Assembly (NCBI RefSeq): GCF_015207655.1
Contig: NZ_JADEWN010000026.1
Span: forward strand, 1 to 64,000
Length of the DNA: 64,000 nt
Source of the DNA: Gloeocapsopsis crepidinum LEGE 06123
Lineage (GTDB): Bacteria; Cyanobacteriota; Cyanobacteriia; Cyanobacteriales; Chroococcidiopsidaceae
Reading direction: 5' to 3'
Position numbers and translations under genes: made by a program. Under the pieces are notes generated by a model. The model saw only the letters and a list, made by a program, of their open reading frames with translations. It had not been told where the DNA came from and did not search any database. Position 1 is the stretch's first letter. Every line of letters begins with the position of its first letter. This document shows positions 7,535 to 63,326 of this stretch, piece after piece.

Positions 7535-8128
7535 GTGGTTAGTACCTCAGAATATTGGGAACAGCGATATCAAGAAGGAACAACTCGTTGGGATTTGGGA
7601 CAAGCTGCACCAGCGTTTGTGAGTTTATTGCAGTCACATTCTTTACAACCAGGCAAGGCAGCAGTTTTAGGTAGTGGTCGCGGCTATGATGCGATCGCAT
7701 TTGCCAAGTATGGCTTTGATGTCATCGGTTTTGATTTTGCACTCCTCGCGATCGCTGAAGCTACTGCAATTGCCCAAGCTAGAGACAGTTCAGCTCAATT
7801 TTTGCAACGTGATATTTTTGACTTGCCTGCTGAATTCTCTCGGTATTTTCACTACATTATTGAACATACTTGTTTTTGTGCGATTAATCCACAACAGCGA
7901 CAGGATTATGTAAAATTAGTGCGAGAAATTTTGCAACCACGAGGCGAACTGATCGCAATCTTTTTTACACATTCTCGTCCTGGCGGTCCCCCTTTTGGCG
8001 TTAGTCCAGAGGAAATTAAACAGTATTTTGCCACAGATTTTGAAATTCTGAAGTTACAGCCAATTACTAATTCTGTACCAGCGCGTCAAGGCGAAGAACA
8101 CTTTGGACACTTTCGCTTGAAACTGTAA
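7535..8128 (+). CDS. Class I SAM-dependent methyltransferase, TPMT-like
   Basis: A 197-residue protein with the thiopurine-methyltransferase-like opening EYWEQRYQEGTTRWDLGQAAPAF. The SAM-binding glycine loop is VLGSGRGYDAIAFA (about 44-57) and the acidic end of strand 2 is VIGFDFA. Bacterial members methylate thiols, halides or selenium and tellurium compounds, and the substrate here is not predictable. The start is GTG at 7535, placed 4-7 bases after GGGGTGAGG, which serves as the ribosome site and is part of a GAGGGGTGAGG low-complexity repeat (7501-7530). It is transcribed divergently from the exporter operon. Confidence 0.85.
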   Translation: MVSTSEYWEQRYQEGTTRWDLGQAAPAFVSLLQSHSLQPGKAAVLGSGRGYDAIAFAKYGFDVIGFDFALLAIAEATAIAQARDSSAQFLQRDIFDLPAEFSRYFHYIIEHTCFCAINPQQRQDYVKLVREILQPRGELIAIFFTHSRPGGPPFGVSPEEIKQYFATDFEILKLQPITNSVPARQGEEHFGHFRLKL

Positions 8129-8599
8129 AAAGTAGTACTACTAATATCATGTTGCTAGCTGCTAAATAACATGAGAAGAGCTGATTCGGTTTCAACCGCA
8201 ACTACACCAATAGAAGCAACAGGGGAGATAGAAGATTAGAGCGTTTAATTGGGTGCAACCATTTTTTTATTGGTATGAGTAAACGTGGTATGAGTAAACG
8301 AATCCTACCTTTATCGATTTATACAAGCCTGATTTTATGAGTCCACCTCAGTGAACTACCCTGTGGGAAGCCGCTGCGCGTCTATGTTTGTTTAGCTGCG
8401 AATATTATTTGCCAAGCGCTAAATTCACCGAATACGTTCCAAAACGGCTGCTAGAGGTGTACGGGCTAGTATCTTGCAGTTAAGCAAACCCTATCATTAA
8501 TAGAAACAACTTATATTTTAATGGTATTGTTATTAGAACTATTTATTGTTAAAGTGAGTCCAGTTAGCGAAACCGACAGCACTTAACAGGAGAAGTTCA
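8129..8599. other. 471-bp intergenic region with two repeats, no gene seen
   Basis: It starts with the palindrome AGTAGTACTACT (8131-8142) directly after the methyltransferase stop. A 15-bp unit GGTATGAGTAAACG(T/A) is repeated in tandem at 8272-8286 and 8287-8301. Positions 8341-8413 hold a dispersed repeat (family B, GGGAAGCCGCTGCGCGTCTA core) shared with 53110-53180. The last 130 bp are AT-rich and probably carry the promoter of the CP12-like gene, preceded by AGGAG at about 8588. Confidence 0.55.
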
Positions 8600-9991: not shown

Positions 9992-10489
9992 GTGTTTAAG
10001 TATCTTCCACCTCTCAATGAGCATAACCTTCCTTATCCCGATACCATTCACCCAATCGTGGTGCATTTCGTGATTGCGATGGTGCTGTTTGCAGTGTTTT
10101 GCGATATTCTTGGGTATTTCACAAAAAATTCTAAATTGTATGAAGTCAGTTGGTGGAATCTGGCTTTCGCAACAGTTTCGATCTTCATTGCAATTATTTT
10201 TGGACAGATTGAAGCAGGTCTGGCAGAACCTTATGCTGCATCTGTTTCAACGCTGAATGTCCATACAGTTTTGGGCTGGTCGCTCTCAGGAATTCTGGCG
10301 ATCGTCACTGCATGGCGCTATGTGATTCGGTTACAGGAAAGACCGCAGTTACCCATTCCTTACCTTGCAGCGAATGTGCTGCTAGTTGGGCTAGTTTGCG
10401 TTCAGTCATACCTGGGCAGCTTACTCGTTTGGGTCTATGGTTTGCATACGATTCCTGTCGTAGAGGCAATCAGAGGAGGTCTACTATGA
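9992..10489 (+). CDS. DUF2231 membrane protein, first of two in the ARTO operon
   Basis: 165 residues with four predicted membrane helices (about 22-42, 55-75, 92-112, 125-148). It carries histidines at helix boundaries: His20 and His25 (HPIVVH), His91 (NVHTVLGW) and His152 (GLHTIP). The same positions are histidines in the next gene, which suggests a metal or heme site; this is inference. DUF2231 pairs commonly precede alternative terminal oxidase genes in cyanobacteria. The start is GTG at 9992; the first ATG in frame comes only at residue 30 inside helix 1, so GTG is preferred. Its TGA overlaps the next ATG by 4 bp. Confidence 0.82.
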   Translation: MFKYLPPLNEHNLPYPDTIHPIVVHFVIAMVLFAVFCDILGYFTKNSKLYEVSWWNLAFATVSIFIAIIFGQIEAGLAEPYAASVSTLNVHTVLGWSLSGILAIVTAWRYVIRLQERPQLPIPYLAANVLLVGLVCVQSYLGSLLVWVYGLHTIPVVEAIRGGLL

Positions 10490-11082
10490 ATCCAGAGCTG
10501 CTGAACCAGTGGAGTAGTTTGGGAGCGAATGGGTTGCCTTACCCAATTCCCATCCATCCCAACCTGGTGCATCTAACACTAGGGTTATTTATCGTGGCGA
10601 TCGCTTTTGACATTGTAGGGGCGTTGTTTCCCGTCGAGAAAGCAGTTTTTAAGTTTCTAGCGATTCCCGTTACCCGTTCGTCGCTGTTTGATGTCGGTTG
10701 GTATAACCTGTTGGCATCAGCGATCATTACCTTTTTTACGGTCATGGCTGGTTTGTTTGAAGTTTCTTTGGCTGTACCGCTTGCGGATGTCACTAGTGCC
10801 TGGGGGCTTCATGCCCTAGAAACGATGATTCTACACGGTGTTGGGGGGGTGCTCATTTTGACATTGATTGTGGGAATGACCGTTTGGCGCGGCTTTCAAC
10901 GCTATCAGTGGCGCAAAGACAAGGCAAGACAGGTGCAGTGGATTTATCTCGCTGCTGGTTTATTTGTTTTCGCTTTGATGTTTGTGCAGGGAACACTAGG
11001 CGCACATTTGGGTGGTGAGTTCGGCGTTCACGTTACAGCAGATCAGATGCTGTACTTAGGCGAAAATCCTAATCAACTGTAG
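10486..11082 (+). CDS. DUF2231 membrane protein, second of two in the ARTO operon
   Basis: 198 residues from the ATG at 10486, which has a strong AGAGGAGG site and overlaps the previous stop (ATGA). A longer frame reading upstream is only an extension through the preceding gene. Four membrane helices are predicted (about 28-48, 72-95, 112-134, 152-172). His24 and His29 (HPNLVH), His117 (LHGVGG) and His182 (FGVHVTA) align with the four histidines of the upstream paralogue; His109 and His174 are additional. It probably forms a complex with its paralogue and supports the oxidase encoded next, perhaps in electron entry. That role is inference, and no function is established for the domain. Confidence 0.82.
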   Translation: MNPELLNQWSSLGANGLPYPIPIHPNLVHLTLGLFIVAIAFDIVGALFPVEKAVFKFLAIPVTRSSLFDVGWYNLLASAIITFFTVMAGLFEVSLAVPLADVTSAWGLHALETMILHGVGGVLILTLIVGMTVWRGFQRYQWRKDKARQVQWIYLAAGLFVFALMFVQGTLGAHLGGEFGVHVTADQMLYLGENPNQL

Positions 11083-11176
11083 GGAAGGCGAAAGGCAAAG
11101 GACAAAAGTTGAAAGTCTTCCTGCCTCCTGCCTTATCCTCCCAGTTCACTGTTATAACTATGGTGCGATCGCTGTC

Positions 11177-12163
11177 ATGAGCAAACTCCGCGCAATTTTA
11201 ATAATGACGGTCTATGCCATCTTGGTGACGTTGGCTAGTATTTGGATGGCAAAACAATCCTACTCATGGTTTCCGCCAGAAGCATCGGCAGAATCGAAAC
11301 TGCTGGACGATCTGTTCAGTCTCTTCACGGGGTTAGGCACGTTCATTTATTTGGGCGTGATCGGACCTTTCCTCTACTCGCTGGTCTTTCATCGAGCCAG
11401 GAAATATGACATGAGCGATGGTCCCCCGATTGAGGGTAATACCTGGCTGGAGATTGTCTGGACGGCAGTGCCATTGGTTTTGGTGTTAACGCTTTCCTTT
11501 GTTAGCTATCGTACTTACGAAAAAATGGCGGTGCGGGGTCCGATGGAACTCGTGCATTTGCACCTACCCCAGATAATACAGCCTGCTTACGCTGCACCTT
11601 TTGATAGCACGCCGCAGCAGGAGATTGAGAATGCAGTAGAAACTGCTCCCATTGAAGAAATTGACGTGACCGCTAAGCAATGGGCATGGGTTTTCCATTA
11701 TCCAAAACAGGATATCACCAGCACTGAATTACATTTACCTGTCAATCGCCGAGTGCGGTTCACGTTGCGATCGGAGGATGTGTTGCATGGCTTTTACATT
11801 CCGGCATTTCGCCTGAAGCAAGATGTCGTTCCCAATCACGAAATCGATTTTGAACTAACTCCTGTTAAAACTGGCACCTATCGCCTGCGTGATTCCATGT
11901 TTAGTGGTACTTACTTTGCGGCAAATCAGGCAGATGTCGTTGTTCAGCCATTCAACGAGTATCAACAATGGCTTGCTGATGCTGCTGCTGCGTCGCCCAC
12001 CCCTGCGTTTAATCAGGCTGCTTTTGAGTACAGTCAAGCAAACGATCAAGAGGGTGCAACGAAAGACAACGTAGTCGTTCGCGGTTGGGACACGATCCCA
12101 CCAGCATCACCACCTGTGGTGAATTATGCCCCTAAGCACGAACCTGACAGTCCACCTACCTGA
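11177..12163 (+). CDS. ctaC: Cytochrome oxidase subunit II without CuA ligands (ARTO type)
   Basis: A 328-residue subunit II with three hydrophobic helices (about 7-26, 50-70, 92-110) and a periplasmic cupredoxin domain (about 150-262). In true cytochrome c oxidases this domain binds CuA through two Cys, two His, Met and Glu. Here only His204 (LHGFYIPAF) remains. In the C-terminal loop the ligand positions read Asp239, Ser243, Phe247 and Asn250 (RDSMFSGTYFAAN). The protein therefore cannot form CuA and should not take electrons from cytochrome c in the usual way. This is the hallmark of cyanobacterial alternative respiratory terminal oxidases. It lies 94 bp after the DUF2231 pair and 45 bp before subunit I. 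Confidence 0.92.
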   Translation: MSKLRAILIMTVYAILVTLASIWMAKQSYSWFPPEASAESKLLDDLFSLFTGLGTFIYLGVIGPFLYSLVFHRARKYDMSDGPPIEGNTWLEIVWTAVPLVLVLTLSFVSYRTYEKMAVRGPMELVHLHLPQIIQPAYAAPFDSTPQQEIENAVETAPIEEIDVTAKQWAWVFHYPKQDITSTELHLPVNRRVRFTLRSEDVLHGFYIPAFRLKQDVVPNHEIDFELTPVKTGTYRLRDSMFSGTYFAANQADVVVQPFNEYQQWLADAAAASPTPAFNQAAFEYSQANDQEGATKDNVVVRGWDTIPPASPPVVNYAPKHEPDSPPT

Positions 12164-12208
12164 TGTGGCTTACTTTCATAAGAGCGTTCGCTCAAGGATT
12201 ACTAACTT

Positions 12209-13924
12209 ATGACGAATATCTCGCTTGAGGCTCCAGAAGTCGTTCGCGGACAGCCCTACCCTGGTGCGCCCGACAACTGGAAGCGATTCTTTACCTTCAG
12301 CACCGATCACAAAGTCATCGGCATTCAATACATCGTCACATCGTTCTTCTTTTTCCTAATTGGTGGCACGTTGTCAATGATTATGCGGGGTGAACTCATT
12401 ACCCCCGATGCCGATTTAGTCGATCGCACCGTTTATAATGCGCTATTCACGATGCATGGCTCGATCATGCTGTTTATGTGGACATTCCCCGTTTTAGTGG
12501 GACTGGGAAATTACCTGGTGCCGCTGATGATCGGGGCACGAGATATGGCATTTCCTCGGCTCAATGCGGTTTCTTTCTGGATGGTTCCCGTGGTGGGCGT
12601 GTTGATGCTTGCCAGTTTCCTGGTACCAGGAGGTCCATCGCAGTCGGGATGGTGGGCATATCCGCCTGTCAGTATACAAAACCCAACAGGAAACCTGCTG
12701 AACGGGCAGGTGTTATGGATTTTGGCAGTGGCAATTTCGGGTGTGTCTTCGATCATGGGCGCGGTGAATTTTGTCACCACTATCTTCCGAATGCGGACAC
12801 CAGGAATGACCTGGTTTAGAACACCTGCTTTTGTCTGGTCAGTGCTAGGAGCACAGTTAATTCAACTGTATGGGCTGCCTGCACTAACTGGAGGAGCAGT
12901 GATGCTGTTGCTCGATATCACGATCGGTACCAGTTTTTTTGCACCAGAGCGGGGTGGCAATCCCATCTTGTATCAACACTTTTTCTGGTTTTACTCGCAT
13001 CCGGCAGTCTATGTAATGATTCTGCCAGTGTTCGGGATGTTTTCCGAAATTTTGCCCGTTCATGCCCGTAAACCTCTATTTGGCTATCGGGTGATTGCAG
13101 CATCATCTATTTTGATTACGGTTGTCAGTGGTTTGGTGTGGGTGCATCATATGTTTGCCAGTGCAACCCCCAGTTGGATGCGGATACTGTTTATGGTGAC
13201 ATCAATGCTGGTTGCCATTCCATCGGGTATCAAGGTGTTTGGTTGGGTCGCAACGATTTGGGGTGGCAAGATTCGCTTCACTACGCCAATGCTGTTTGCT
13301 CTGGGCGGCATTAGTAACTGGCTATTTGCTGGAATTACCGGAATCTTTCTTGCTTCTGTGCCGATCGATATCCACGTCAACAACACCTACTTTGTGGTCG
13401 GACATTTCCATTACGTGCTATATGGCGCGATCGTCATGGGTATCTATGCCGGAATTTATCACTGGTTTCCCAAAATGACCGGACGCATGTATTACGAAGG
13501 TTTGGGCAAACTGCACTTTGCCTTGACTTATCTGGGAACGGCGTTAACCTTCCTGCCGATGCACCCCGCTGGATTGATGGGAATGCCGCGTCGTGTCGCA
13601 TCCTATGACCTGGAATTTGCTTACTGGAATGTCTTAGCAAGTCTTGGCGGTTTTCTATTGGGTCTGTCTACGCTACCATTTATTCTCAATATGGTGAGTT
13701 CCTGGATTCGTGGCGAGAAAGTGGGCAACAATCCCTGGCGAGCATACGGCTTAGAGTGGCTCACCTCTTCACCACCGACTGTCGAAAACTTTGAAGAACT
13801 GCCGCTTGTGGTTTCGGGACCCTACGGCTACGGCAGGAACCAACCATTGGTAGGAAATACTCCCAATCCAGGCTTGACTGAATTTCCTGAATCTCTCACC
13901 GCTATGCAGAGTGATGAGTTATGA
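12209..13924 (+). CDS. ctaD: Heme-copper oxidase subunit I, A2 type (ARTO)
   Basis: 571 residues with the 12-helix heme-copper oxidase core. Key residues are visible: His83 for low-spin heme (TMHGSIMLF), His264 and Tyr268 of the CuB/cross-link site, His313-His314 (WVHHMF) for CuB, and His399 and His401 (GHFHYV) for the high-spin and low-spin hemes. Helix VI reads YSHPAVY (262-268). The D-channel glutamate of A1 oxidases is replaced, and the Tyr-Ser pair takes its place, which defines the A2 subtype. It reduces O2 to water with proton pumping in the cytoplasmic or thylakoid membrane. The upstream subunit II lacks CuA, so quinol or another donor is likely. Confidence 0.96.
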   Translation: MTNISLEAPEVVRGQPYPGAPDNWKRFFTFSTDHKVIGIQYIVTSFFFFLIGGTLSMIMRGELITPDADLVDRTVYNALFTMHGSIMLFMWTFPVLVGLGNYLVPLMIGARDMAFPRLNAVSFWMVPVVGVLMLASFLVPGGPSQSGWWAYPPVSIQNPTGNLLNGQVLWILAVAISGVSSIMGAVNFVTTIFRMRTPGMTWFRTPAFVWSVLGAQLIQLYGLPALTGGAVMLLLDITIGTSFFAPERGGNPILYQHFFWFYSHPAVYVMILPVFGMFSEILPVHARKPLFGYRVIAASSILITVVSGLVWVHHMFASATPSWMRILFMVTSMLVAIPSGIKVFGWVATIWGGKIRFTTPMLFALGGISNWLFAGITGIFLASVPIDIHVNNTYFVVGHFHYVLYGAIVMGIYAGIYHWFPKMTGRMYYEGLGKLHFALTYLGTALTFLPMHPAGLMGMPRRVASYDLEFAYWNVLASLGGFLLGLSTLPFILNMVSSWIRGEKVGNNPWRAYGLEWLTSSPPTVENFEELPLVVSGPYGYGRNQPLVGNTPNPGLTEFPESLTAMQSDEL

Positions 13925-13989
13925 ATGATGAATTTTGAATTATAAATAATGAATGGGATTAACTCAAAACTTTTGAAGCAGCAAACATC

Positions 13990-14598
13990 ATGACAGCAGA
14001 AAGAGTCATTTCCCAAGACGTTGAAGCGACCGTTCGACAGCACCAGGAGCATGACGCAGCAGGAAACAGTAAGTTTGGCTTTATCGTGTTTTTGCTCTCG
14101 GAAAGTGTCATCTTCCTGAGCTTCTTTACGGGTTACATTGTCTACAAAACCACCAATCCTGACTGGTATCCACCAGGTGTGACTGGTTTGGAAACCAGAG
14201 AGCCACTGATTAATACGCTTGTGTTGGTATCGAGTAGTTTTGTCATCTACGTGGCTGAGCGTTATTTACACGATAAAAAACTGTGGGGGTTTCGGATATT
14301 TCTGCTAGCAACAATGGCAATGGGGGGATACTTCTTGCTTGGGCAGGCAGTGGAATGGAGCAGTTTACCGTTTGGATTTAAAGACGGTTTGTTCGGGGGC
14401 ATGTTCTATTTACTGACCGGATTTCATGGTCTGCATGTCCTCACAGGCATTCTACTGCAAACATTGATGCTGGGGCGATCGTTTATCTCCGGTAACTACG
14501 ACAACGGTTTCTTTGGTGTTGAAGCAACGTCTTTATTCTGGCACTTTGTTGATGTCATTTGGATTGTGTTATACACGCTAATTTATGTTTGGCAGTGA
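13990..14598 (+). CDS. ctaE: Heme-copper oxidase subunit III
   Basis: 202 residues with five hydrophobic helices and the family landmarks FLLSESVIFLSFFTGYIVYK near the start, GFHGLHVLTG in the middle and WHFVDVIWIVLYTLIYVW at the C-terminus. It completes the operon DUF2231-DUF2231-ctaC-ctaD-ctaE. It begins 65 bp after ctaD; that gap holds TTATGAATGATGAATTTTGA-like AT-rich repeats. No heme A synthase or assembly gene follows, so heme A must come from another locus. Confidence 0.95.
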   Translation: MTAERVISQDVEATVRQHQEHDAAGNSKFGFIVFLLSESVIFLSFFTGYIVYKTTNPDWYPPGVTGLETREPLINTLVLVSSSFVIYVAERYLHDKKLWGFRIFLLATMAMGGYFLLGQAVEWSSLPFGFKDGLFGGMFYLLTGFHGLHVLTGILLQTLMLGRSFISGNYDNGFFGVEATSLFWHFVDVIWIVLYTLIYVWQ

Positions 14599-14618
14599 GG
14601 AAGGCAGGAGGCAGGAGA

Positions 14619-14980
14619 TTAGGTATGGGATTTGAGTTTGTTGAGGGTTGCGACTAGAAGTCTTTGCATTTGTTCGATATCGCTTAGGAGAGCAGTGAAT
14701 TTTGATGCTTCAGCTAGATTAACTTGTTGAGCGATGACCAATTAGTGTATCGAGTTCTCGCAACGAACCCAGAGCAATATGTAGAAACTGGATATACGTC
14801 GCGCTTTGTTTTTCTACCATATCCCTCTGCAATGTTAGATGCAACTGAAACAGATGCTCGTCTAATTTGACTCGTTAAACCATAAATTTCTGAGCGCGGA
14901 AAACCTTGCGTCAGCTGGTAACACTTAACAGCTAACTCCACTCCCTTCCTCCAAATAAACTGCTCCCTATGACTCATCAC
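14619..14980 (-). pseudogene. Four-helix-bundle protein (23S rRNA intervening-sequence protein family), two frameshifts
   Basis: From the ATG at 14980 the frame gives the family start (SHREQFIWRKGVELAVKCYQ, then GLTSQIRRASVSVASNIAEG). After YGRKTKRD it loses phase. The expected continuation IQFLHIALGSLRELDTL is found in a second frame, and IAQQVNLAEASKFTALL up to the stop at 14619-14621 in a third. Two frameshifts therefore separate an otherwise complete protein of about 120 residues. The family forms pentamers of unknown function and is common in cyanobacteria. It lies antiparallel between ctaE and the GMC oxidoreductase. Confidence 0.8.
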
Positions 14981-15094
14981 TAATATCCAACATATCTAAT
15001 AGCACCTTATTTCTAATAATTCCCACTATCCTCCAATATCTACTCTCTACCTTCTACTACCCTCTACCCTTCTTCCCCCTAACAGGAGATTTCT

Positions 15095-16597
15095 ATGATC
15101 GTTGACGACCAATACTATGACGTAATTATTGTTGGCACGGGTGCAGGCGGTGGAACCCTGGCGCGAAAGCTAGCACCAACTGGTAAAAAGATCTTGCTGG
15201 TAGAGAGGGGAGAACTGATCTATCGCGAAAGCTCAGAGTTGGTCGATACAGAAATTTTTAAGAAAGAACAATTTCATGCGCCTGAATCCTGGTACGACAA
15301 TACAGGAGAGCCATTTTATCCGCAAACATATTACGCCGTTGGTGGCAATACAAAAATCTGGAGTGGCGTTCTGCAGCGCATGCGCGAACGTGACTTTGAG
15401 GAAGTGCAGCATCAAGGAGGAATTTCTCCCGCATGGGCGCTGAAATATCATGACTTTGAGCCTTACTACACAGAAGCCGAGAAGTTGTATCAAGTACACG
15501 GTAAAGTCGAAGATGACCCCACTGAGCCGCCCCGTAGCGAAGCGTATCCTTTTCCAGAAGTTGCCCATGAGCCGATGGTGCAACGCATTGGCGACGCCCT
15601 TTCTCAGCAGGGTTTGCATCCTGTTCATTTGCCTTTAGGGTTGGGTAATCGCGGTAGAACTGATGCTGAGGACACCGGAGTTAGCCCAGTCCTCAACAAC
15701 GAAAACGTGACGCTCAAAACCTCTGCTCAGGTTGTTTGTCTGCATACCAATCCATCAGGCTCAGGGATCAAAGCAGTTCAAGCAAAAATTGGGGAACAGT
15801 CCTATTTGTTTTTAGGCGACATTGTGGTTCTTGCCTGTGGTGCTGTGAACTCGGCAGCCTTGCTGCTGCGGTCTGCCAACGAAAAACATCCCAACGGAAT
15901 TGCGAACGGCTCTAATCAGGTGGGGCGCAATTTGATGAAACAACTGCTGTCGGTTGTGGTGCAGTTAACCTCTACCGCTAATTCTGGGTCATTCTCCCGC
16001 ACAATGGGGCTAAATGATTTTTATTGGGGAGACAAGGATTTTCCGTATCCGATGGGTCACGTACAAAACTCTGGTGGCATTTTTCAAGATGTGATTTTTG
16101 CCGAAGCACCACCGATTTTATCGGCATTATCTAGGCTGATGCCAAATTTTGGCTTGCGGCAGTTGGCAACCCATTCAATCGGTTGGTGGCTGAAAACGGA
16201 AGACTTGCCCCATCCCAACAATCGCGTTCGCTATGTGGGAGACAAACTGCGAATTGATTACACCGCGAATAATGTAGAAGCGCACGATCGCTTGGTATAT
16301 CGTTGGGTTGATGTATTGAAAAGCGTCGAGCAGTCTCAACCCAATATATTTAACCGCGCAACCCATCCTCGCAGCGATATGCCTGTACAGGTTATTGCTC
16401 ATCAGTGCGGCACTTGTCGATTTGGAGAAGATCCGGCGACTTCTGTGTTGGATCTGAACTGTCGTGCCCACGAAGTGCATAATCTCTATGTTGTAGACAG
16501 CAGTTTTTTCCCATCTCATGCCAGTGTTAGTCCTGGTTTAACTGTCATTGCCAATGCTTTGCGGGTAGGCGATCGCTTAATCGAGCAGTTGAAGTAA
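15095..16597 (+). CDS. GMC-family FAD-dependent oxidoreductase
   Basis: 500 residues. The FAD-binding Rossmann motif is DVIIVGTGAGGGTLARKLAP (about 9-28), followed by ERG and the second FAD contact YAVGGNTKIWSGVL. The C-terminal GMC_oxred_C domain has VIAHQCGTCRFGEDPATSVL and the final VDSSFFPSHASVSPGLTVIA motif. These flavoenzymes oxidise alcohols, sugars or sterol-like substrates; the substrate is not evident. AACAGGAG stands 8 bases before the ATG. The gene follows the ARTO operon in the same direction after a 0.5 kb gap, so it might supply electrons to the quinone pool for that oxidase. This is speculative, since a broken gene lies between. Confidence 0.88.
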   Translation: MIVDDQYYDVIIVGTGAGGGTLARKLAPTGKKILLVERGELIYRESSELVDTEIFKKEQFHAPESWYDNTGEPFYPQTYYAVGGNTKIWSGVLQRMRERDFEEVQHQGGISPAWALKYHDFEPYYTEAEKLYQVHGKVEDDPTEPPRSEAYPFPEVAHEPMVQRIGDALSQQGLHPVHLPLGLGNRGRTDAEDTGVSPVLNNENVTLKTSAQVVCLHTNPSGSGIKAVQAKIGEQSYLFLGDIVVLACGAVNSAALLLRSANEKHPNGIANGSNQVGRNLMKQLLSVVVQLTSTANSGSFSRTMGLNDFYWGDKDFPYPMGHVQNSGGIFQDVIFAEAPPILSALSRLMPNFGLRQLATHSIGWWLKTEDLPHPNNRVRYVGDKLRIDYTANNVEAHDRLVYRWVDVLKSVEQSQPNIFNRATHPRSDMPVQVIAHQCGTCRFGEDPATSVLDLNCRAHEVHNLYVVDSSFFPSHASVSPGLTVIANALRVGDRLIEQLK

Positions 16598-41418: not shown

Positions 41419-41670
41419 AAAATAGTTTTGATTTTAACTAATTGAATAGAAAATTTAAACTTGCATAGATATCTTAAGAATTGACGCTTTAGAGATGCTT
41501 TCTTCAAGTACTAGCAAAACCCCAGCGATTTTCTGACTTATGGTAATCTATAGCTATTTTTAGCTTAATTTCTATTTTAAGTAATTCTTCAGTAGTATTT
41601 ACTATGCTAGATGAACTGGAACGTTATATCAGTTAAAAAGACAAATAATAGGTATAACGGAATACGAAAT

Positions 41671-42879
41671 ATGACACAAAGTAAAGATGTGGCACAATTG
41701 GGACTCTTCAGTACAACCATCTTAACATTCTTTTTATCAACTGCTGTATTACCACAAAAAGTACTAGCTGAAAATAGTGTAAGTACAGCAAATTTGACTG
41801 ATTTAAAGCCAGGCGATCGCTTAGATAACTGGCAGTATAATTTTCAGGAAGTTAAATTAGAGCAGAATACCACAACAGTATTTGCAAATCAGTTTGTAAA
41901 TGAAAATAGTTTTACGACTACAGAATTAGATCAACTGCCAAATTTTAATGACAACAATGTAAATCATGAATATCAATCTGCATACATTACAAGTTCTCAG
42001 CAAGTAGAAGTTTCCTATAATGCAGTAGATTTGTTAGCAGAAAATAGTTTAGAACAGCAGTTATTGATAGGTGAAGTTGATTTAGACACACTTTGTCGCA
42101 CTTTTCCCCTAAATTCACGCTGCGCTGGCTACCAACAAACGTCCGAACAACAAACACAACAACAGCTAATACAACGACTATCGCAATCAGAACGACAAAA
42201 CTTAGAAACACGTTTATTAGAAAGATTAGCACTCACACCAGAAGCACCTGTGCGGAGTGGTTTTGCACTAGGAGGTAAAGTTAGTACTTTGGGTGTTGGG
42301 ATTGAGGGTGTTGGTGCGATTTCACCCAATTTGAATGGCAGACTAGGATTTAATTACTTAGGTTTTAGTGATGGATTTACCGAAAGTAACATCGATTATG
42401 ACGGTGATTTACAACTACTAAACGCTACTGGAATGCTTGATTGGTTTCCTTCAAGTACAAGTGGTTTTCGAGTGACTGGAGGTTTAATCTATCAAAACAA
42501 TCGAGTTGATGCGATCGCGCGTCCGGCTGAAGTCTTAGAAATTGGTGGTATTGAATTTCCGCTAGCTGTAGTTGGTCAACTTGAGGGTTCATTAACATTT
42601 CCTAACACAATTGCACCTTATATTGGCATTGGTTATGGTAATCCTGTGAGCCGCGGTAGTGCATTCAGCTTTAATATCGATTTAGGTGTTTTATTTCCAG
42701 GTTCACCACAAGCAGATTTGCAAGCAACAGGTCCAGGTGCAGATCTTATTGGCGGAATTCCTATATTAAATAATTTACTAGAGGATGCGATCGCCCAGGA
42801 AGAACAAGATATTGAAGATAACGTCAGTTGGCTTGGCGTGTATCCAGTACTTTCTATAGGAGTTTCTTATCAGTTTTAA
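41671..42879 (+). CDS. Exported outer-membrane-like beta-barrel protein, unassigned
   Basis: 402 residues from the ATG at 41671; the ATG at 41611 would add 20 residues before the signal peptide. The signal peptide (FSTTILTFFLSTAVLPQKVL, cleavage near VLA-EN) is clear. A disordered Asn/Thr-rich region, a cysteine-bearing helix (TLCRTFPLNSRCAGY) and a C-terminal half with alternating hydrophobic strands (SGFALGGKVSTLGVGIEGVG, then LSIGVSYQF) follow. The terminal Phe after a Tyr-Gln pair is typical of outer-membrane barrels. No family name is recognised. Confidence 0.7.
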   Translation: MTQSKDVAQLGLFSTTILTFFLSTAVLPQKVLAENSVSTANLTDLKPGDRLDNWQYNFQEVKLEQNTTTVFANQFVNENSFTTTELDQLPNFNDNNVNHEYQSAYITSSQQVEVSYNAVDLLAENSLEQQLLIGEVDLDTLCRTFPLNSRCAGYQQTSEQQTQQQLIQRLSQSERQNLETRLLERLALTPEAPVRSGFALGGKVSTLGVGIEGVGAISPNLNGRLGFNYLGFSDGFTESNIDYDGDLQLLNATGMLDWFPSSTSGFRVTGGLIYQNNRVDAIARPAEVLEIGGIEFPLAVVGQLEGSLTFPNTIAPYIGIGYGNPVSRGSAFSFNIDLGVLFPGSPQADLQATGPGADLIGGIPILNNLLEDAIAQEEQDIEDNVSWLGVYPVLSIGVSYQF

Positions 42880-42951: not shown

Positions 42952-45642
42952 TCAAAAGGGTTGCGATCGCATACAAGCAACGCAATCGCGTGCCTCTTTT
43001 TTAGCACGGTATAATGCAGCATCCGCAGCACGAAGGAGTTCTTCTGGAGTATGACCATTTTCTGGAAAACAGGCAACTCCTAGAGAAAGAGTAATCTTAC
43101 TAAGTAACTGCTGATTGTACTGGAGTTTTAGCAGTTTAACTTCTTGCCGGAGTTGCTCTGCACGCTGACACGCAACTTCCAAAGTTGTCTCTGGTAAAAT
43201 CAGCGTGAACTCTTCACCTCCGTAACGACAGGCTACATCTGATTTACGGATAGAGTCTTGCAAAACTTGAGCTAATTTTTGTAAAACAAGGTCGCCCGCT
43301 TTATGACCAAACGTATCATTAAAGCGCTTAAAGTAGTCAATGTCGAGCATGATCAGTGCTAGTGGTTGCTGTTGGCGATCGCAGCGATAAAGTTCTAGTT
43401 CGAGTGATTCCGCCATGTAACGACGATTAAATAACCCTGTCAGTGGATCTCGAACGCTTTGATTGTGTAGTGTTTCGCGAAGTTTTACGTTTGCCAAAGA
43501 AAGCGAAATTCGTTCTGCTACTGTTAAAGCAAGCTGTTGCTTAACTTGTGTTAATTGTCCAGATTCTAGCGAATTTAAATACAGCATACCTAGTGCTTCA
43601 CCTTGCGCCACCATTGGTATGCAGAGTGACTCGGCAGGGAATTGGTTATGATTGATGTGTTTGCATAGTAAACCGCTACAGGCATCATTCACAAAATGCG
43701 ATCGCCCGCACCGTAGCGCCCAACAATCATTTGATGCAAACAAGTTATGGCTAGATAGTGGTGCTGAACCCCACGCAGTCACGGCTGTAAATAAATTTTG
43801 TGGTGCATTATGCAAAAAAATCGCACCTGTTATTTCAGGAAATAGCTGTGGCATTTGAGCAGCGATCGCCCGACAAGCTTCCTCAACTGTGAGACATGCT
43901 TGGAAAATATCACTCATTTCCGCAAGTTGAGCAATTTCGCGGTTACGTTGTTCTAAATAAGCCACTGAGTTCTTGAGTTGCTCGTTGACTTGCTGTAAAG
44001 CTGCTGCTCCCTGCTTGCGCTGTGTAATGTCTGTGTGTGAACCAACCATTCGCACTGGCTTGCCCGCTTCATCCCATAATGCTTGACCGCGATCTAAAAT
44101 CCATTTATAAGTGCCGTCTTTGCACAGTACGCGATGCTCAGAGATATAAAAAGGTGTTTTCTGAGCAAAATGATCTTGAATAACTTGTGTAACCCAACCA
44201 AGATCGTCGGGATGCACGCGAGATGCCCATTCATCTAAATGGTTCGCAATTTCTTGCTCTTGGTAGCCTAACATTTCCTTCCACCGCGCCGAAAAGAACA
44301 CTTGATTTGTTTTGACATTCCAATCCCAAATGCCATCATTGTTACCACGTAAAGCCAGTTGCCAACGTTCCTCACTTTCTTGCAGTGCATCTAATGCCTG
44401 TTTACGCGCTGTAATGTCTTGAATTTGCGCAATGAAGTACAACGGATTACCATTAGCGTCGTGAACTAACGAAACACTTAAAAGAATCCAGACGATATGC
44501 CCTAGTTTGTGGAAATAGCGCTTTTCCATCTGATAGGTGCGAATCGCGCCCGCTAACATTTGGCGAACATAATTAAGATCGATATCGAGATCGTCTGGAT
44601 GCGTAATCGCTTGAAAATTAGTTGCAAGTAGTTCGTACTCTGAATAACCGACAATCTCACATATGGCGCGATTGACTTTTAGCCAGGTGCCGTCTAGTGC
44701 TACTAATGCTATCCCAATTGCTGCATAGTCAAACGCGCTCCGAAAGCGCTCTTCACTTTCTCGCAGCGCCTCCTCGGTTTGTGCTAATGCATCTAATGTC
44801 TGTTTATAGTTAATAATTTCGCTTTTGAGTTCTTGGTTAGCGACTTCAACTGCTTTGATACGTTGTAACGCTTGATTTTGGTTGCTCTTGGCAATTTCAG
44901 CAAGACATTCTAGTTGAGTTTGCGACTCGCGTCGAATTCGTGCTTGGTATTGCGGCAAAAAGTTTGCTAAATTAGGTTCTTCGTCTATGAGTAAAGAAAG
45001 ATAGTTTTGTACTCGCTGATCTGCTGCGTATCCATACGCTACTTCGGGGTGGGCTTCCATCCAAGTGTGACAGGTTTTGATATAAGCAATTAATGTGACT
45101 AAGTATTGATAATTTTCAAAACCTAATAATCGCCGCAACTGAGTTTGGTCATACCCAGAAGTGTCTTTTCCTAAAAAAATGAATGCTGAACAGTAAATGA
45201 GACTTTCTTCAATTGCAGAATCAAAAGACAAGCGTGTTAAGTTATTCGTTGCGTTGACAAGCACTCGAAAATGATGCTCAATCTCGGTTTCTTCCAGAGG
45301 AGGTGGCGATTCTAGCAATATTAAGACTTCTCGTGCTTTCATCCCTAATGAGTATAAGGAGCAGCTATGGCATACCATGCAGTAAGGAACACTACAATAG
45401 CGAGAGAGGTATGCAGACAGCTTTTCCTTAAATAAAGTTGGTAAAGGATTGTCGAGATAGGCACTGAGAGTTTGCTGCCACAAGTTTTCTAAGATGTAGG
45501 GATTCTGTTGTGCCGGACTAAAGAAGGGAGGGAAAAAGCCTAGTTTTGCCTCAATCTCGACTTTGATTTGCTCACTCGTGCGCGTAGAATAGCTTTGCAC
45601 TGCGTTAACTCTGGATGTGATTGATGGGGAACCTGAAATCAA
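42952..45642 (-). CDS. AhpD-like / PAS-PAS / GAF / GGDEF diguanylate cyclase
   Basis: 896 residues. Residues about 25-230 resemble the AhpD/carboxymuconolactone-decarboxylase fold, with a cysteine cluster Cys83, Cys88, Cys91 and Cys94 (YCSVPYCMVCHSC). A coiled coil (about 245-290) leads to two PAS domains with PAC motifs (about 290-415 and 420-545), a GAF domain (about 570-715) and a GGDEF domain. The active-site loop reads GGEEF (808-812) in RYGGEEFTLILPE, so c-di-GMP synthesis is expected. The cysteine pair could make the cyclase redox-responsive, which is inference. It is cytosolic and monocistronic. Confidence 0.85.
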   Translation of the reverse strand: MISGSPSITSRVNAVQSYSTRTSEQIKVEIEAKLGFFPPFFSPAQQNPYILENLWQQTLSAYLDNPLPTLFKEKLSAYLSRYCSVPYCMVCHSCSLYSLGMKAREVLILLESPPPLEETEIEHHFRVLVNATNNLTRLSFDSAIEESLIYCSAFIFLGKDTSGYDQTQLRRLLGFENYQYLVTLIAYIKTCHTWMEAHPEVAYGYAADQRVQNYLSLLIDEEPNLANFLPQYQARIRRESQTQLECLAEIAKSNQNQALQRIKAVEVANQELKSEIINYKQTLDALAQTEEALRESEERFRSAFDYAAIGIALVALDGTWLKVNRAICEIVGYSEYELLATNFQAITHPDDLDIDLNYVRQMLAGAIRTYQMEKRYFHKLGHIVWILLSVSLVHDANGNPLYFIAQIQDITARKQALDALQESEERWQLALRGNNDGIWDWNVKTNQVFFSARWKEMLGYQEQEIANHLDEWASRVHPDDLGWVTQVIQDHFAQKTPFYISEHRVLCKDGTYKWILDRGQALWDEAGKPVRMVGSHTDITQRKQGAAALQQVNEQLKNSVAYLEQRNREIAQLAEMSDIFQACLTVEEACRAIAAQMPQLFPEITGAIFLHNAPQNLFTAVTAWGSAPLSSHNLFASNDCWALRCGRSHFVNDACSGLLCKHINHNQFPAESLCIPMVAQGEALGMLYLNSLESGQLTQVKQQLALTVAERISLSLANVKLRETLHNQSVRDPLTGLFNRRYMAESLELELYRCDRQQQPLALIMLDIDYFKRFNDTFGHKAGDLVLQKLAQVLQDSIRKSDVACRYGGEEFTLILPETTLEVACQRAEQLRQEVKLLKLQYNQQLLSKITLSLGVACFPENGHTPEELLRAADAALYRAKKEARDCVACMRSQPF

Positions 45643-45918: not shown

Positions 45919-46890
45919 CTATGACTTAATTCTATCTGACTTAGGATGAGCATTTCTTTCAATATACTCGCGACTAGCACCACCACCGTCAATTTGTACT
46001 TGAATTGCTGGTTCGTAGCCTTCTGCTGCACTACGGATTTGTGCCACACTCGATAGCAATACGCCGTAAACTACTTTAGAAAAAATGTCTGCCATCGTGT
46101 AGAGAAATTGTCGCGTTACAGCTGCCCACGCACCCCATGCGGGAAAAGCCTTCCAAGCCCAAGGTACCAAGTAGGCTAAGGGATAAAGCGTCCAAGAAAT
46201 CAAGATTAACCACCAAATTGTCCCCATAGTTTTATAGGCTTGGCGAGGTAAATTTTCACGTGATTTGAAGATCAAATTCCCCATCATATAGAGAATGTAA
46301 ACGTAAAAAACGGTACTTACCGCACCCCAAAAGAGAAACCAACCAGTGTTTGTAATTTCAAAGTACTGTCCGATATATCCTGTGTAAATCATTAATAAAC
46401 CAGCAGTGATGAAGCGAAACCGCAGCTTGCGGAAACGTCCTGGCGTAACATCAATCACAAATAACATTTGAGTTAGCAAACATGGTACATCAATTGACCA
46501 ATTAAGGTAACGATAACCATTCGAGAACGTGCTTTCTGTAAATCTGCCTGCTGTACCAACACCCAGCCCCCAAACTGTTCCATCAAAGGCAAATGCTGAC
46601 AGCCACTCTACTAATTGCAAACCTAGAATTAAGAAAGCTGACACCATGACGACAGCAGATAGCGTCGATGATGGTTGAAATCGCGGTAACGAGCGACTGT
46701 TAGTTGTAATAAATTATACAAATCCTACTGCCATCACACTCACACCAAGTGTTAATAAATGCGATATTAATTGGTGCTGTACTGGCGAGTAAGTGAGTAA
46801 GTTTTCCATAATCGTACCTTCTGGTACAACTACAGTCTGCGCCATCAAATTTTGTATAAAGGAAGTTGCCAGCACTCCTAACTCAAACAT
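45919..46890 (-). pseudogene. NDQ-type (sodium-pump-like) microbial rhodopsin interrupted by one in-frame stop
   Basis: From the ATG at 46890 (GAGGAG upstream) the frame encodes helix A, reaches a TAA at codon 59 (46714-46716), then continues in the same phase to 45919. An open frame begins only at codon 82 (46647). Helix C reads RYLNWSIDVPCLLTQ; the residues at bacteriorhodopsin positions 85, 89 and 96 are Asn130, Asp134 and Gln141, the NDQ triad of KR2-type light-driven Na+ pumps. ITGYIGQYFEITN and the retinal lysine Lys272 (ADIFSKVVYGV) match the family. In KR2 the equivalent of the stop is a Tyr, one base from TAA. The short form would lack helix A. Confidence 0.85.
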
Positions 46891-47248
46891 TAATTCTCCT
46901 CATTAACTGAACAGTAAAATAAGTAATAAAATATTTTATTTAAAAACATTTTTTATTCTATATTTATTTAGTAGAATATTAACTTGTCGCAGTATTAAAA
47001 CAAAAAAACATCAATTGCTCAAGTTCTCTTGAAAGTATTATCTCTAATAAATATGTAACCAACTCTATCTCAAGATATATTTCATTTTGAAGAATGTGTA
47101 TAGTATAAAACTAAAATTCTTAATAAGATTAGTACGACTTGACACACAGGCTAATAACAGTAGTATACACAGGCAGGTTAACAAGATTAGATTTAGATGA
47201 TATAGCGGGGCAGCTATTTCATATTCAATGCGTTAACTTACTGTGCAA
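46891..47248. other. AT-rich 358-bp region upstream of the rhodopsin
   Basis: It contains runs such as AAATATTTTATTTAAAAAC and no gene. It should hold the rhodopsin promoter. No carotenoid dioxygenase (blh) gene for making retinal lies near. Confidence 0.5.
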
Positions 47249-48292
47249 TTAACTTGCGAATAGAATTTGATGTAGCAAATCTCGATGAATGGTTGCTTGA
47301 TCTACTAAAGATTGAATTTGATCTGGAGTAAGAGAATCACCATTTGCATAATGTTCAAGCAATGTATTATAAATTACATGATATTCATCAGGAATTTCAG
47401 TTAAATTCCATCCTGGCATATCAAGTTCTGCCATCAATTTACTCACTTTAGGATCGTAACTTAAGGCAAAACAGCGACATCCCTCAGCCGCAGCCATAAT
47501 TAAACTATGAAGGCGCATACCGATCGCCATTTCAACACCTCGAAATAAGCCTTTTAAAGCTTTAGGATCTTGCAAAGACAAAATTTTATAAACTCCAGGA
47601 AGTTGCGGTGCGATCGCTTCAGCAATTGCTAAATCTTGACTTTGCTGAAAAGGCACGAGCAAAATACAAGTTTGTGTTGCTTTTTGAAAATCAATTAAAG
47701 CACGGGTGAAATTACTAAGACGAGTTGCAGTTAATTGGGGGTGCGATCGCAATGTGACTGCAACTCTAGGTGCAGGTAAATCCCATAACCCAAGTACAGG
47801 CGAAGCCTCTAACGCCCATACTGGATCGGGGGCGAGAGTACATGGAATTCCCCATTCAGATAATAAAGCCGCACTACCTCGATCGCGGACACTCACTGCA
47901 GTACAATTTTCAAATGTCTGTCGTGCCAACTCCTGTGTAGTATTACGCTTTAGAGGACCAATTCCCTGCGCCCAAGCAATCGTTTTTAATCCGAGTTTTT
48001 GTGCAAGTGTCATTAATCCGCCGTAATACAAAGGGCTAATCGCACTCGTCACATCTTGCATCAAACTTCCACCACCCCAAATAAACGCATCCGACTTGCG
48101 CAAAGTTTGGAGTACGCTGAATAATCCCATGCGATCGCACGCTTCCACATGATAGCGATCGCGCGTCTCCTGCGGATTACCCGAAAGTACAATTGGTGTC
48201 ACATGATCTGGTAACATTTGCAAAAGTGTTGCTAATAAAGCCTCATCACCACCATTGCCCTTACCATAGTATCCACACAAAACTGCCCGCAT
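47249..48292 (-). CDS. csaB: Polysaccharide pyruvyl transferase CsaB
   Basis: 347 residues from the ATG at 48292; a GTG 9 bases upstream is possible. CsaB adds pyruvate ketals to cell-wall or exopolysaccharide sugars. Family landmarks are LCGYYGKGNGGDEALLATLL, FIWGGGSLMQD, TIAWAQGIGPL, the VRDRGSAALLSEWGI motif and the GMRLHSLIMAAAEGCR motif with its conserved His. The length is normal. It stands alone, without S-layer or polymer genes beside it, so its acceptor is probably an exopolysaccharide. Confidence 0.92.
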   Translation of the reverse strand: MRAVLCGYYGKGNGGDEALLATLLQMLPDHVTPIVLSGNPQETRDRYHVEACDRMGLFSVLQTLRKSDAFIWGGGSLMQDVTSAISPLYYGGLMTLAQKLGLKTIAWAQGIGPLKRNTTQELARQTFENCTAVSVRDRGSAALLSEWGIPCTLAPDPVWALEASPVLGLWDLPAPRVAVTLRSHPQLTATRLSNFTRALIDFQKATQTCILLVPFQQSQDLAIAEAIAPQLPGVYKILSLQDPKALKGLFRGVEMAIGMRLHSLIMAAAEGCRCFALSYDPKVSKLMAELDMPGWNLTEIPDEYHVIYNTLLEHYANGDSLTPDQIQSLVDQATIHRDLLHQILFAS

Positions 48293-48442
48293 CTTACCCA
48301 CGTTATTACCTCAGATAACCTAACAAAAACTCTATCCGAGATTGTCAGTCATTAACTAAATCTGAGCAGTACCATAAAAAAGCACTTGTATACAATTTGA
48401 TCGCTACCCTCATCCCTCACCCCTCGCCCCTCATCCCTCATT

Positions 48443-62471: not shown

Positions 62472-63326
62472 TCAATTTAATCGCTGGCGGAAGTAGGCGC
62501 TGAATGCATCAATTAGGCTAACCATTGCCAAAATCAATAGCAAAATGGTACAGAGTCGAGGAAAGTCGAGCAGCTTTAAACTGACTAGCAATTCGTAGCC
62601 GATACCTCCAGCCCCAACGATACCTAAAATTACAGAAGAACGGACGTTAAATTCCCATAAATACAAACTGATGCCAATTAATCCAGGTAGTGCTTCGGGT
62701 AAGACTGCAAAGGCAAAGCTGCGAAGGCGATCGCTCCCAGTGGCTTCAATGGCTTCAATCGGTTCGCTGGGTAATGATTCCAACACTTCAGCGTAAAGCT
62801 TTGCCATCGATCCAGTCGTGTGAAATGCTACGCCTAAGGCTCCAGCAAAAGGTCCTAAACCCACAATTGAAACAAAAAATAAAGCGAAAATAGCAGTATC
62901 AATACCGCGTAGCAAATTTAGTAGCCCTCGTAGGGGAGTAGCTAACCATTGCACCGGAGTAATATTTCGCGCAACTAACAAGGCTAGAGGAACGGCAACT
63001 AGAATTGCACAACCTGTGCCAATAATGGCGATTGCTAAGGTTTCCCAAATCGCTTCAAAAAAGATGGGTAGCTCTGAAAAATCAGGCGGAAATAAACGAG
63101 ACAGCCATTCTCCCACTGTAGGGATGCGCTGCCAAAATTGCAACAAATCTACCCTTGCTGTGCGGGCACTAGCAATCAGTAGGGCGATCGCCAGCACTCC
63201 CCAAAAGCTACGATGCAAAAGTTTCCAAACACCTCCCTGTCGTCGTTGCTCAGTTGCTAGGATTGCATTTAAATCAGGAAAATTATCAACTCGATTAACT
63301 TCACTCTTAGTAAATGGAAGGGTCAT
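62472..63326 (-). CDS. phnE: Phosphonate/phosphite ABC transporter permease
   Basis: 284 residues with about six membrane helices. The binding-protein-dependent transport signature (EAA loop) is TGSMAKLYAEVLESLPSEPI, then EAIEATGSDRLRSFAFAVLP. It resembles PhnE closely (GLLNLLRGIDTAIFALFFVS, SVILGIVGAGGIGYELLVSL). The ATG overlaps the phnD stop by 4 bp. A hydrophilic stretch of about 35 residues precedes helix 1, slightly longer than usual. Plasma membrane. Confidence 0.93.
   Translation of the reverse strand: MTLPFTKSEVNRVDNFPDLNAILATEQRRQGGVWKLLHRSFWGVLAIALLIASARTARVDLLQFWQRIPTVGEWLSRLFPPDFSELPIFFEAIWETLAIAIIGTGCAILVAVPLALLVARNITPVQWLATPLRGLLNLLRGIDTAIFALFFVSIVGLGPFAGALGVAFHTTGSMAKLYAEVLESLPSEPIEAIEATGSDRLRSFAFAVLPEALPGLIGISLYLWEFNVRSSVILGIVGAGGIGYELLVSLKLLDFPRLCTILLLILAMVSLIDAFSAYFRQRLN

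What the first reader, a model, noticed from the sequence alone, without database searches (positions are those of the whole stretch)
45919..46890. NDQ sodium-pump-type rhodopsin in a cyanobacterium, broken by a single TAA codon
The open frame beginning at 46647 lacks the first transmembrane helix. Reading upstream in the same phase gives a good ribosome site, an ATG at 46890, helix A and the conserved LSAVVMVSAF junction, interrupted only by TAA at codon 59. The matching KR2 residue is Tyr, one base away. The NDQ triad, the retinal lysine and the GYIGQ motif are intact. It is either a very recent loss, a sequencing error, or a gene read through or started internally. NDQ rhodopsins are best known from marine flavobacteria, so a cyanobacterial copy also matters for ion physiology and gene transfer.
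Basis: partly seen in the sequence, partly recalled or inferred. Interest (0 to 1): 0.9.

Follow-up and report, generated by a model that had tools for sequence, protein, structure and literature searches.

The report
Recently broken cyanobacterial sodium-pump rhodopsin gene
A cyanobacterium carries a gene for a light-driven sodium pump that one stop codon appears to have broken recently, while close relatives carry the same gene either whole or broken in other ways, so this pump looks repeatedly dispensable in that family.

Summary
Window 46890-45919 (minus strand) reads as a full-length NDQ rhodopsin, about 46% identical to KR2, cut by one TAA at codon 59 (46716-46714). KR2 has Tyr45 there, as do the four orthologues that keep the site.

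Orthologues lie at the same place beside a csaB-like gene in five genomes of the family. Three are intact, including Gloeocapsopsis dulcis. One sister has a 1-bp insertion. Gloeocapsa sp. PCC 7428 has lost the 5' part and carries further lesions. So three of six copies are broken, each differently. A fourth broken copy lies in a Phormidium MAG. The nearest sister has Tyr at the site, so the stop arose after their split. Codon models reject neutral drift along whole tip branches: the losses are recent. Without reads, a sequencing error cannot be excluded.

Internal start or readthrough is unlikely: the downstream ATG lacks a ribosome site and drops helix A and part of helix B.

Cyanobacterial NaRs are already published. 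Here they form two deep clades outside the flavobacterial group. The host also has a second, intact NDQ rhodopsin.

Verdict: recent pseudogene, one of several independent losses.

The parts
45919..46890 (-). NDQ rhodopsin gene (type A), 323 codons read through one TAA; pseudogene
46714..46716 (-). TAA at codon 59, near the end of helix A; KR2 Tyr45; Tyr in the four orthologues that keep the site
46717..46890 (-). 58-codon 5' frame (N-terminus and most of helix A), start ATG 46890 (ATG also in G001, GTG in the three intact orthologues)
46896..46900 (-). AGGAG ribosome-site-like motif before ATG 46890
45919..46647 (-). 242-aa open frame after the stop, from the ATG at KR2 Met68 (inside helix B); no ribosome-site-like motif before it
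46501..46503 (-). Asn of NDQ (KR2 N112)
   Evidence: codon 130
46489..46491 (-). Asp of NDQ (KR2 D116)
   Evidence: codon 134
46468..46470 (-). Gln of NDQ (KR2 Q123)
   Evidence: codon 141
46075..46077 (-). retinal Lys (KR2 K255)
   Evidence: codon 272
47249..48301 (-). polysaccharide pyruvyl transferase gene (PF04230; the name csaB is recalled), upstream neighbour in all six carriers (synteny anchor)

Best explanation
The gene descends from an intact cyanobacterial rhodopsin of the NDQ (Na+ pump, NaR) class and was inactivated very recently by a nonsense mutation near the end of helix A. Ribosomes starting at ATG 46890 would make a 58-residue peptide with no retinal site, and the rest is not expected to be translated efficiently. 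The loss is one of several independent ones at this locus in the family. In this strain it may be buffered by a second, intact NDQ rhodopsin elsewhere in the genome. Shown: the stop, the intact and the differently broken orthologues, low dN/dS, the second copy. Inferred: no functional product, Na+ transport by the intact relatives, and why the pump is dispensable.
For: The stop sits at a conserved Tyr; three intact orthologues are 92-95% identical over the post-stop part. There are three unlike lesions among six same-place copies: TAA here, a 1-bp insertion in G001, and in G014 a 517-bp stretch (as in G010) replaced by 128 bp, plus a TAA, a TGA and a 1-bp deletion in the remnant. The nearest sister G001 has TAC at the site, and its own insertion is absent here, so both lesions postdate their split. 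Between G000 and G001, Sd is 15.5 and Nd 2.5 over 291 codons. Omega = 1 over the whole tip is rejected for each broken tip (2dlnL 6.15, 7.18, 21.62). Of 25 G002 frames and 35 G001 frames of at least 120 aa that match the window at over 60% identity, rhodopsin is the only one with a stop inside the window's coding part, so the assembly is not full of stops here. No ribosome-site-like motif stands before the internal ATG.
Against: One substitution in a draft assembly of 150 contigs could be an error, and low dN/dS fits an error or a working gene just as well. Omega on the window's tip rests on very few changes. G001, too, is a draft (about 60 contigs) with one inserted base, and several of its neighbouring genes are also broken or missing, so part of that may be assembly quality. 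Two other window genes look shortened or fragmentary against G002 (its frames at 62873 and 54193). There are no expression data.
Confidence: 0.8

Rival explanations
1. The TAA is a sequencing, assembly or mixed-culture artefact and the strain has an intact NDQ pump.
For: A single base; the rest of the gene shows purifying selection; draft assembly.
Against: Consensus errors of this kind are rare in draft genomes (general knowledge, not tested); no other shared gene of the window carries such a stop; two of five sister copies are independently broken, one of them in PCC 7428 by a replacement of hundreds of bases within a 5.43-Mb contig.
Confidence: 0.12
2. A shorter protein from ATG 46647 (helices B to G, with NDQ and Lys) is made and kept for another role, perhaps with the helix-A peptide as a split rhodopsin.
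For: The residual frames of all three broken family copies still show low dN/dS; the 242-aa frame keeps NDQ and Lys.
Against: No ribosome-site-like motif; the start lies inside helix B and drops KR2 N61 and S64; lesions fall at different places in different copies, and G014 has stops and a deletion inside its remnant, so no shared short form exists.
Confidence: 0.05
3. The TAA is read through or recoded so that full-length pump is made.
For: The frame is continuous on both sides.
Against: None of the five orthologues has the stop; RNA folding around it is unremarkable (z -1.68; 8 of 200 shuffles fold as well); TAA serves as ordinary terminator in 12 of 33 window frames examined.
Confidence: 0.03

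Closest known systems
Solved NDQ sodium pumps: KR2 (3x3b, 4xtl) and 8jh0 (labelled 'Xanthorhodopsin' in the PDB; that it is the Indibacter Na+ pump is recalled)
   Same: NDQ triad, R109, D251, K255, H30, S64, S70, GYIGQ; about 46% identity to KR2 over 247 aligned positions
   Different: Broken by TAA here; uptake-side N61 and G263 are both Ser; KR2 Y25, T83 and D102 are His, Leu and Arg; 14 more residues before the aligned part and 4 more in the B-C region
Cyanobacterial NaR genes of Hasegawa et al. 2020 (PMC7541481) and Hasegawa-Takano et al. 2024 (PMC11528372)
   Same: NaR class in Cyanobacteria (1 and 6 genes; passages, one section)
   Different: The passages infer acquisition from outside cyanobacteria, and the word 'pseudogene' occurs in neither main text; which strains they hold was not seen (supplements not readable), so overlap with the copies here is possible
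Second NDQ rhodopsin in the same genome (G000:C74, 308 aa)
   Same: NDQ triad, Lys, GYIGQ
   Different: 49-53% identity to the window gene, intact, of another clade (B), near a Na+/H+ exchanger-family gene

Membership tests
NDQ sodium-pumping rhodopsin (NaR) | Homology to microbial rhodopsins (PF01036) | tested here: met
   104.6 bits against cut-off 24.6
NDQ sodium-pumping rhodopsin (NaR) | N-D-Q triad in helix C | tested here: met
   N130, D134, Q141 = KR2 N112, D116, Q123
NDQ sodium-pumping rhodopsin (NaR) | Retinal Lys in helix G | tested here: met
   K272 = KR2 K255
NDQ sodium-pumping rhodopsin (NaR) | Groups with NDQ rhodopsins, apart from xanthorhodopsin-like ones | tested here: met
   100/100 branch in both careful trees; chloride-pump (NTQ) rows were not in the trees
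NDQ sodium-pumping rhodopsin (NaR) | Seven helices in one open frame | tested here: not met
   TAA at codon 59 ends the frame in helix A: a pseudogene of the family, not a working member
NDQ sodium-pumping rhodopsin (NaR) | Light-driven outward Na+ transport | not testable with these tools
   needs expression and a transport assay of an intact orthologue
Pseudogene | Disabling lesion absent from orthologues at the same place | tested here: met
Pseudogene | Relaxed selection | tested here: inconclusive
   no rise in omega on the window tip (2dlnL 1.01, towards lower omega), as expected of a very recent loss but also of an error
Pseudogene | No functional product | not testable with these tools
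   needs proteomics or expression data

The most novel reading that the evidence does not exclude
Cyanobacteria hold two of the oldest lineages of NDQ sodium pumps, branching before the marine flavobacterial radiation from which the class is known, and in the family of Chroococcidiopsis and Gloeocapsopsis one of these pumps is switched off again and again by fresh, independent mutations, as if Na+ pumping by light were selected for and against on short time scales.
Probability: 0.2. Interest if true: 0.7.

Novelty: new member of a known kind. Interest (0 to 1): 0.45.

Why it matters
A set of close strains with whole and freshly broken copies at one locus is a natural experiment: it allows a test of what a light-driven Na+ pump is worth to an organism that already has chlorophyll photosynthesis. 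The deep placement of two cyanobacterial NDQ clades also questions the published remark that cyanobacteria acquired NaR from outside.

Tried and rejected
Recent transfer from flavobacteria: not supported by the trees. A single cyanobacterial origin of clades A and B was neither shown nor rejected (p-AU 0.111). Of the three rows added from the Chloroflexota and Deinococcota searches, L208 falls below all other NDQ rows, L209 joins the base of the non-cyanobacterial group and L210 lies inside it; L208 and L209 are long branches. So 'NDQ arose in cyanobacteria' is not shown. One other cyanobacterial row, G636, sat apart from clade B on a long branch; I dropped it and 12 others. Five rows of the set were left out beforehand (two duplicates, three short or broken).

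Redundancy with the second NDQ gene as the general cause of loss: rejected as a general rule, because the other two broken-copy genomes, G001 and G014, show no second NDQ match. It remains possible for this strain.

Breakage tied to the NDQ type: 4 of 11 type-A copies are broken against 0 of 18 xanthorhodopsin-like matches of the class search (Fisher p 0.014), but within the family 3 of 6 against 1 of 11 xenorhodopsin-like copies gives p 0.099. The counts are post hoc and the copies related, so I claim no excess. The 11 are the window, G001, G002, G004, G010, G014, G248, and one each from Lyngbya aestuarii, Vasconcelosia, strain SU3 and Phormidium tanganyikae (these last four were each seen in two collections and counted once). 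Of the 18, one (L184) does not reach the motif, so 17 were typed by it; stops shown there for L172 and L173 lie past the gene's end.

RNA structure at the stop and the promoter scan (4 sites against 5.6 in shuffles) led nowhere. The search for the blh-type retinal enzyme (PF15461) found nothing, but no control rang either. No structure prediction was run; I took the fold from the similarity to solved pumps. Searches read loci on the wrong strand and were superseded. One search (paper search) returned unrelated papers.

Full report
OBSERVATION. The minus-strand stretch 46890-45919 reads as one rhodopsin frame with one internal stop, TAA at codon 59, 46716-46714. AGGAG stands five bases before ATG 46890. 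After the stop the first start is ATG 46647, giving 242 aa, with no ribosome-site-like motif in the 25 bases before it. Pfam Bac_rhodopsin matches at 104.6 bits for the short frame. Read through with Tyr at the TAA, the protein matches Na+-pump structures best: 8jh0 (named 'Xanthorhodopsin' there, 2e-67), then the KR2 chains (about 3e-62), then chloride pumps (3.5e-56 and weaker). On the KR2 alignment N112, D116, Q123, R109, D251, K255, H30, S64 and S70 are kept; N61 and G263 are both Ser; Y25, T83 and D102 are not kept.

WHICH ORGANISM. The window lies in a 5.67-Mb draft genome of 150 contigs. Its same-genus relative G002 carries a contig identical over the 8 kb queried to a Gloeocapsopsis dulcis plasmid, and G014 one identical over 8 kb to a Gloeocapsa sp. 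PCC 7428 plasmid. A try for G003 found nothing. The species of the window is not known.

ORTHOLOGUES. Of 60 genomes searched (the window's own included) 11 had a match: the own one, five with an orthologue (G001, G002, G004, G010, G014) and five with weak matches to remnants or other rhodopsins. The PF04230 (csaB-like) gene lies upstream on the same strand in all six carriers. In the 12 non-carriers of the family in which it was found, nothing rhodopsin-like lies in the flanks held, at most 1.5 kb a side; one genome (G017) gave no csaB match. Aligned, G002, G004 and G010 are intact with a GTG start. G001 has a 1-bp insertion in the B-C region. G014 has lost its 5' part (517 bp in the G010 arrangement replaced by 128 bp) and carries a TAA, a TGA and a 1-bp deletion in the rest. 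No lesion is shared. In a Phormidium tanganyikae MAG the type-A copy has a TGA and a shifted stretch across the D and Q of the triad.

RECENCY. G000 and G001 differ by 15.5 synonymous and 2.5 non-synonymous changes over 291 codons (omega 0.047). A codon model from my own script on six sequences and 294 codons gives omega 0.036 overall. Tips G000, G001 and G014 show no significant rise (2dlnL 1.01, 0.55, 1.37; for G000 the estimate is lower, not higher), and omega = 1 along the whole tip is rejected for each (2dlnL 6.15, 7.18, 21.62). So each gene worked for most of its tip branch. The data cannot separate a very recent loss from an error or from a working gene.

BACKGROUND. Of 61 G002 frames in the stretch compared, 25 match the window at over 60% identity; 4 were flagged. 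These are rhodopsin, one whose stops lie before the window's start codon, one cut short (10-240 of 333) and one fragmentary. Of 65 G001 frames 35 match; 3 were flagged: rhodopsin, a gene broken in G001 itself, and one whose stop lies before the window's start codon. The shared part of the window is thus not full of nonsense codons. On the G001 side more genes of this stretch are broken or missing.

OTHER RHODOPSINS. The genome has two more: an intact NDQ rhodopsin of 308 aa on C74 (NDQ-B) and an intact one on C72 with Asp-Thr-Ala in the triad positions, by recall like sensory or xenorhodopsins. C74 has a Na+/H+ exchanger-family gene and an MscS-type channel gene nearby. Carotenoid-oxygenase-family genes are present (3 places, 4 matches). 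In the family search 16 of 19 genomes have a rhodopsin match, and broken copies also occur in other types (G006 frameshift; G011 stop and frameshift; G013:C1 several stops); G018:C187 (one TAA) and G008:C93 (partial) were not worked out. NDQ-B remnants, C-terminal only, sit in G003 and G009; the G009 one is 81% identical to C74 over 57 residues.

DISTRIBUTION AND TREE. In 388 genomes of the order 15 matched at 1e-10, of which 10 carry NDQ copies or pieces of them and 5 are xanthorhodopsin-like. In 388 of the class 25 matched at 1e-25, of which 7 are NDQ-bearing (8 copies) and 18 xanthorhodopsin-like. In careful trees type A is one clade (100/99, 99/99) and type B another (98/98; G636 fell apart from it). 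The Bacteroidota and other non-cyanobacterial NDQ proteins form a separate group in which neither nests. With rows from further searches, L209 (Deinococcota search) joins the base of that group, L210 (same genome) lies inside it, and L208 (Chloroflexota search) falls below all NDQ rows; L208 and L209 have long branches. The non-cyanobacterial rows came mostly from a best-80 list by similarity to the window (80 of 128), so more distant NDQ proteins, such as the Erythrobacter type, are missing. At 1e-58 the search around the Thalassobius genome found 1 of 395, the seed itself, around the Chloroflexota genome 2 of 301, and around the Trueperaceae genome 2 of 111, seeds included.

LITERATURE. Hasegawa et al. 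2020 (PMC7541481, passages) list 1 NaR among 56 cyanobacterial rhodopsin genes and suggest horizontal transfer. Hasegawa-Takano et al. [quoted passage not shown] 'Pseudogene' occurs in neither main text. A search for rhodopsin with Gloeocapsopsis gave 0 papers, with Gloeocapsa and Chroococcidiopsis 2 (one opened for passages, which do not speak of NDQ). Rhodopsin, pseudogene and cyanobacteria gave 31, of which 15 were seen as a listing only. Searches were seen as listings, with passages of PMC9728251. I found no report of the broken NDQ copies in these searches.

VERDICT. Most likely a recent nonsense mutation in a real NDQ rhodopsin gene, one of at least three independent breakages among six same-place copies. 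The protein class and its presence in cyanobacteria are known; the repeated, fresh loss and the deep placement of the cyanobacterial clades are what is worth following.

Noticed in passing
G000:C74:49142-50068 (L103:10143-11069): Second, intact NDQ rhodopsin in the same genome, of another clade, with a PF00999 Na+/H+ exchanger-family gene and an MscS-type channel gene close by.
   Followed up: partly
L105 about 8109-8246; L106 about 8306-8482: C-terminal remnants of NDQ-B rhodopsin in two relatives of the family (G003, G009); the L106 remnant has an in-frame stop.
   Followed up: partly
L142/L154 (G006), L143/L155 (G011), L152 (G013): Broken copies of other rhodopsin types (xenorhodopsin-like and halorhodopsin-like by motif and recall) in the same family: rhodopsin genes decay here more generally.
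   Followed up: partly
window 41611-42879 and 42952-45642 against G001 and G002: In sister G001 the 422-aa gene without Pfam match is in pieces, and of the PAS-GAF-GGDEF gene only a 49-residue match is left; G002 shows no match over 60% for the latter at all.
   Followed up: no
window about 9992-16597: Block of six frames of at least 120 aa with no match over 60% in the syntenic stretch of G001, while flanking genes are shared.
   Followed up: no
L021/L165 (Phormidium tanganyikae MAG): NDQ-A copy with a TGA and a shifted stretch across the D and Q of the triad, else well conserved.
   Followed up: partly
L209 and L210 (G1519, Deinococcota search): One genome with two NDQ rhodopsins of quite different places in the tree.
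   Followed up: partly
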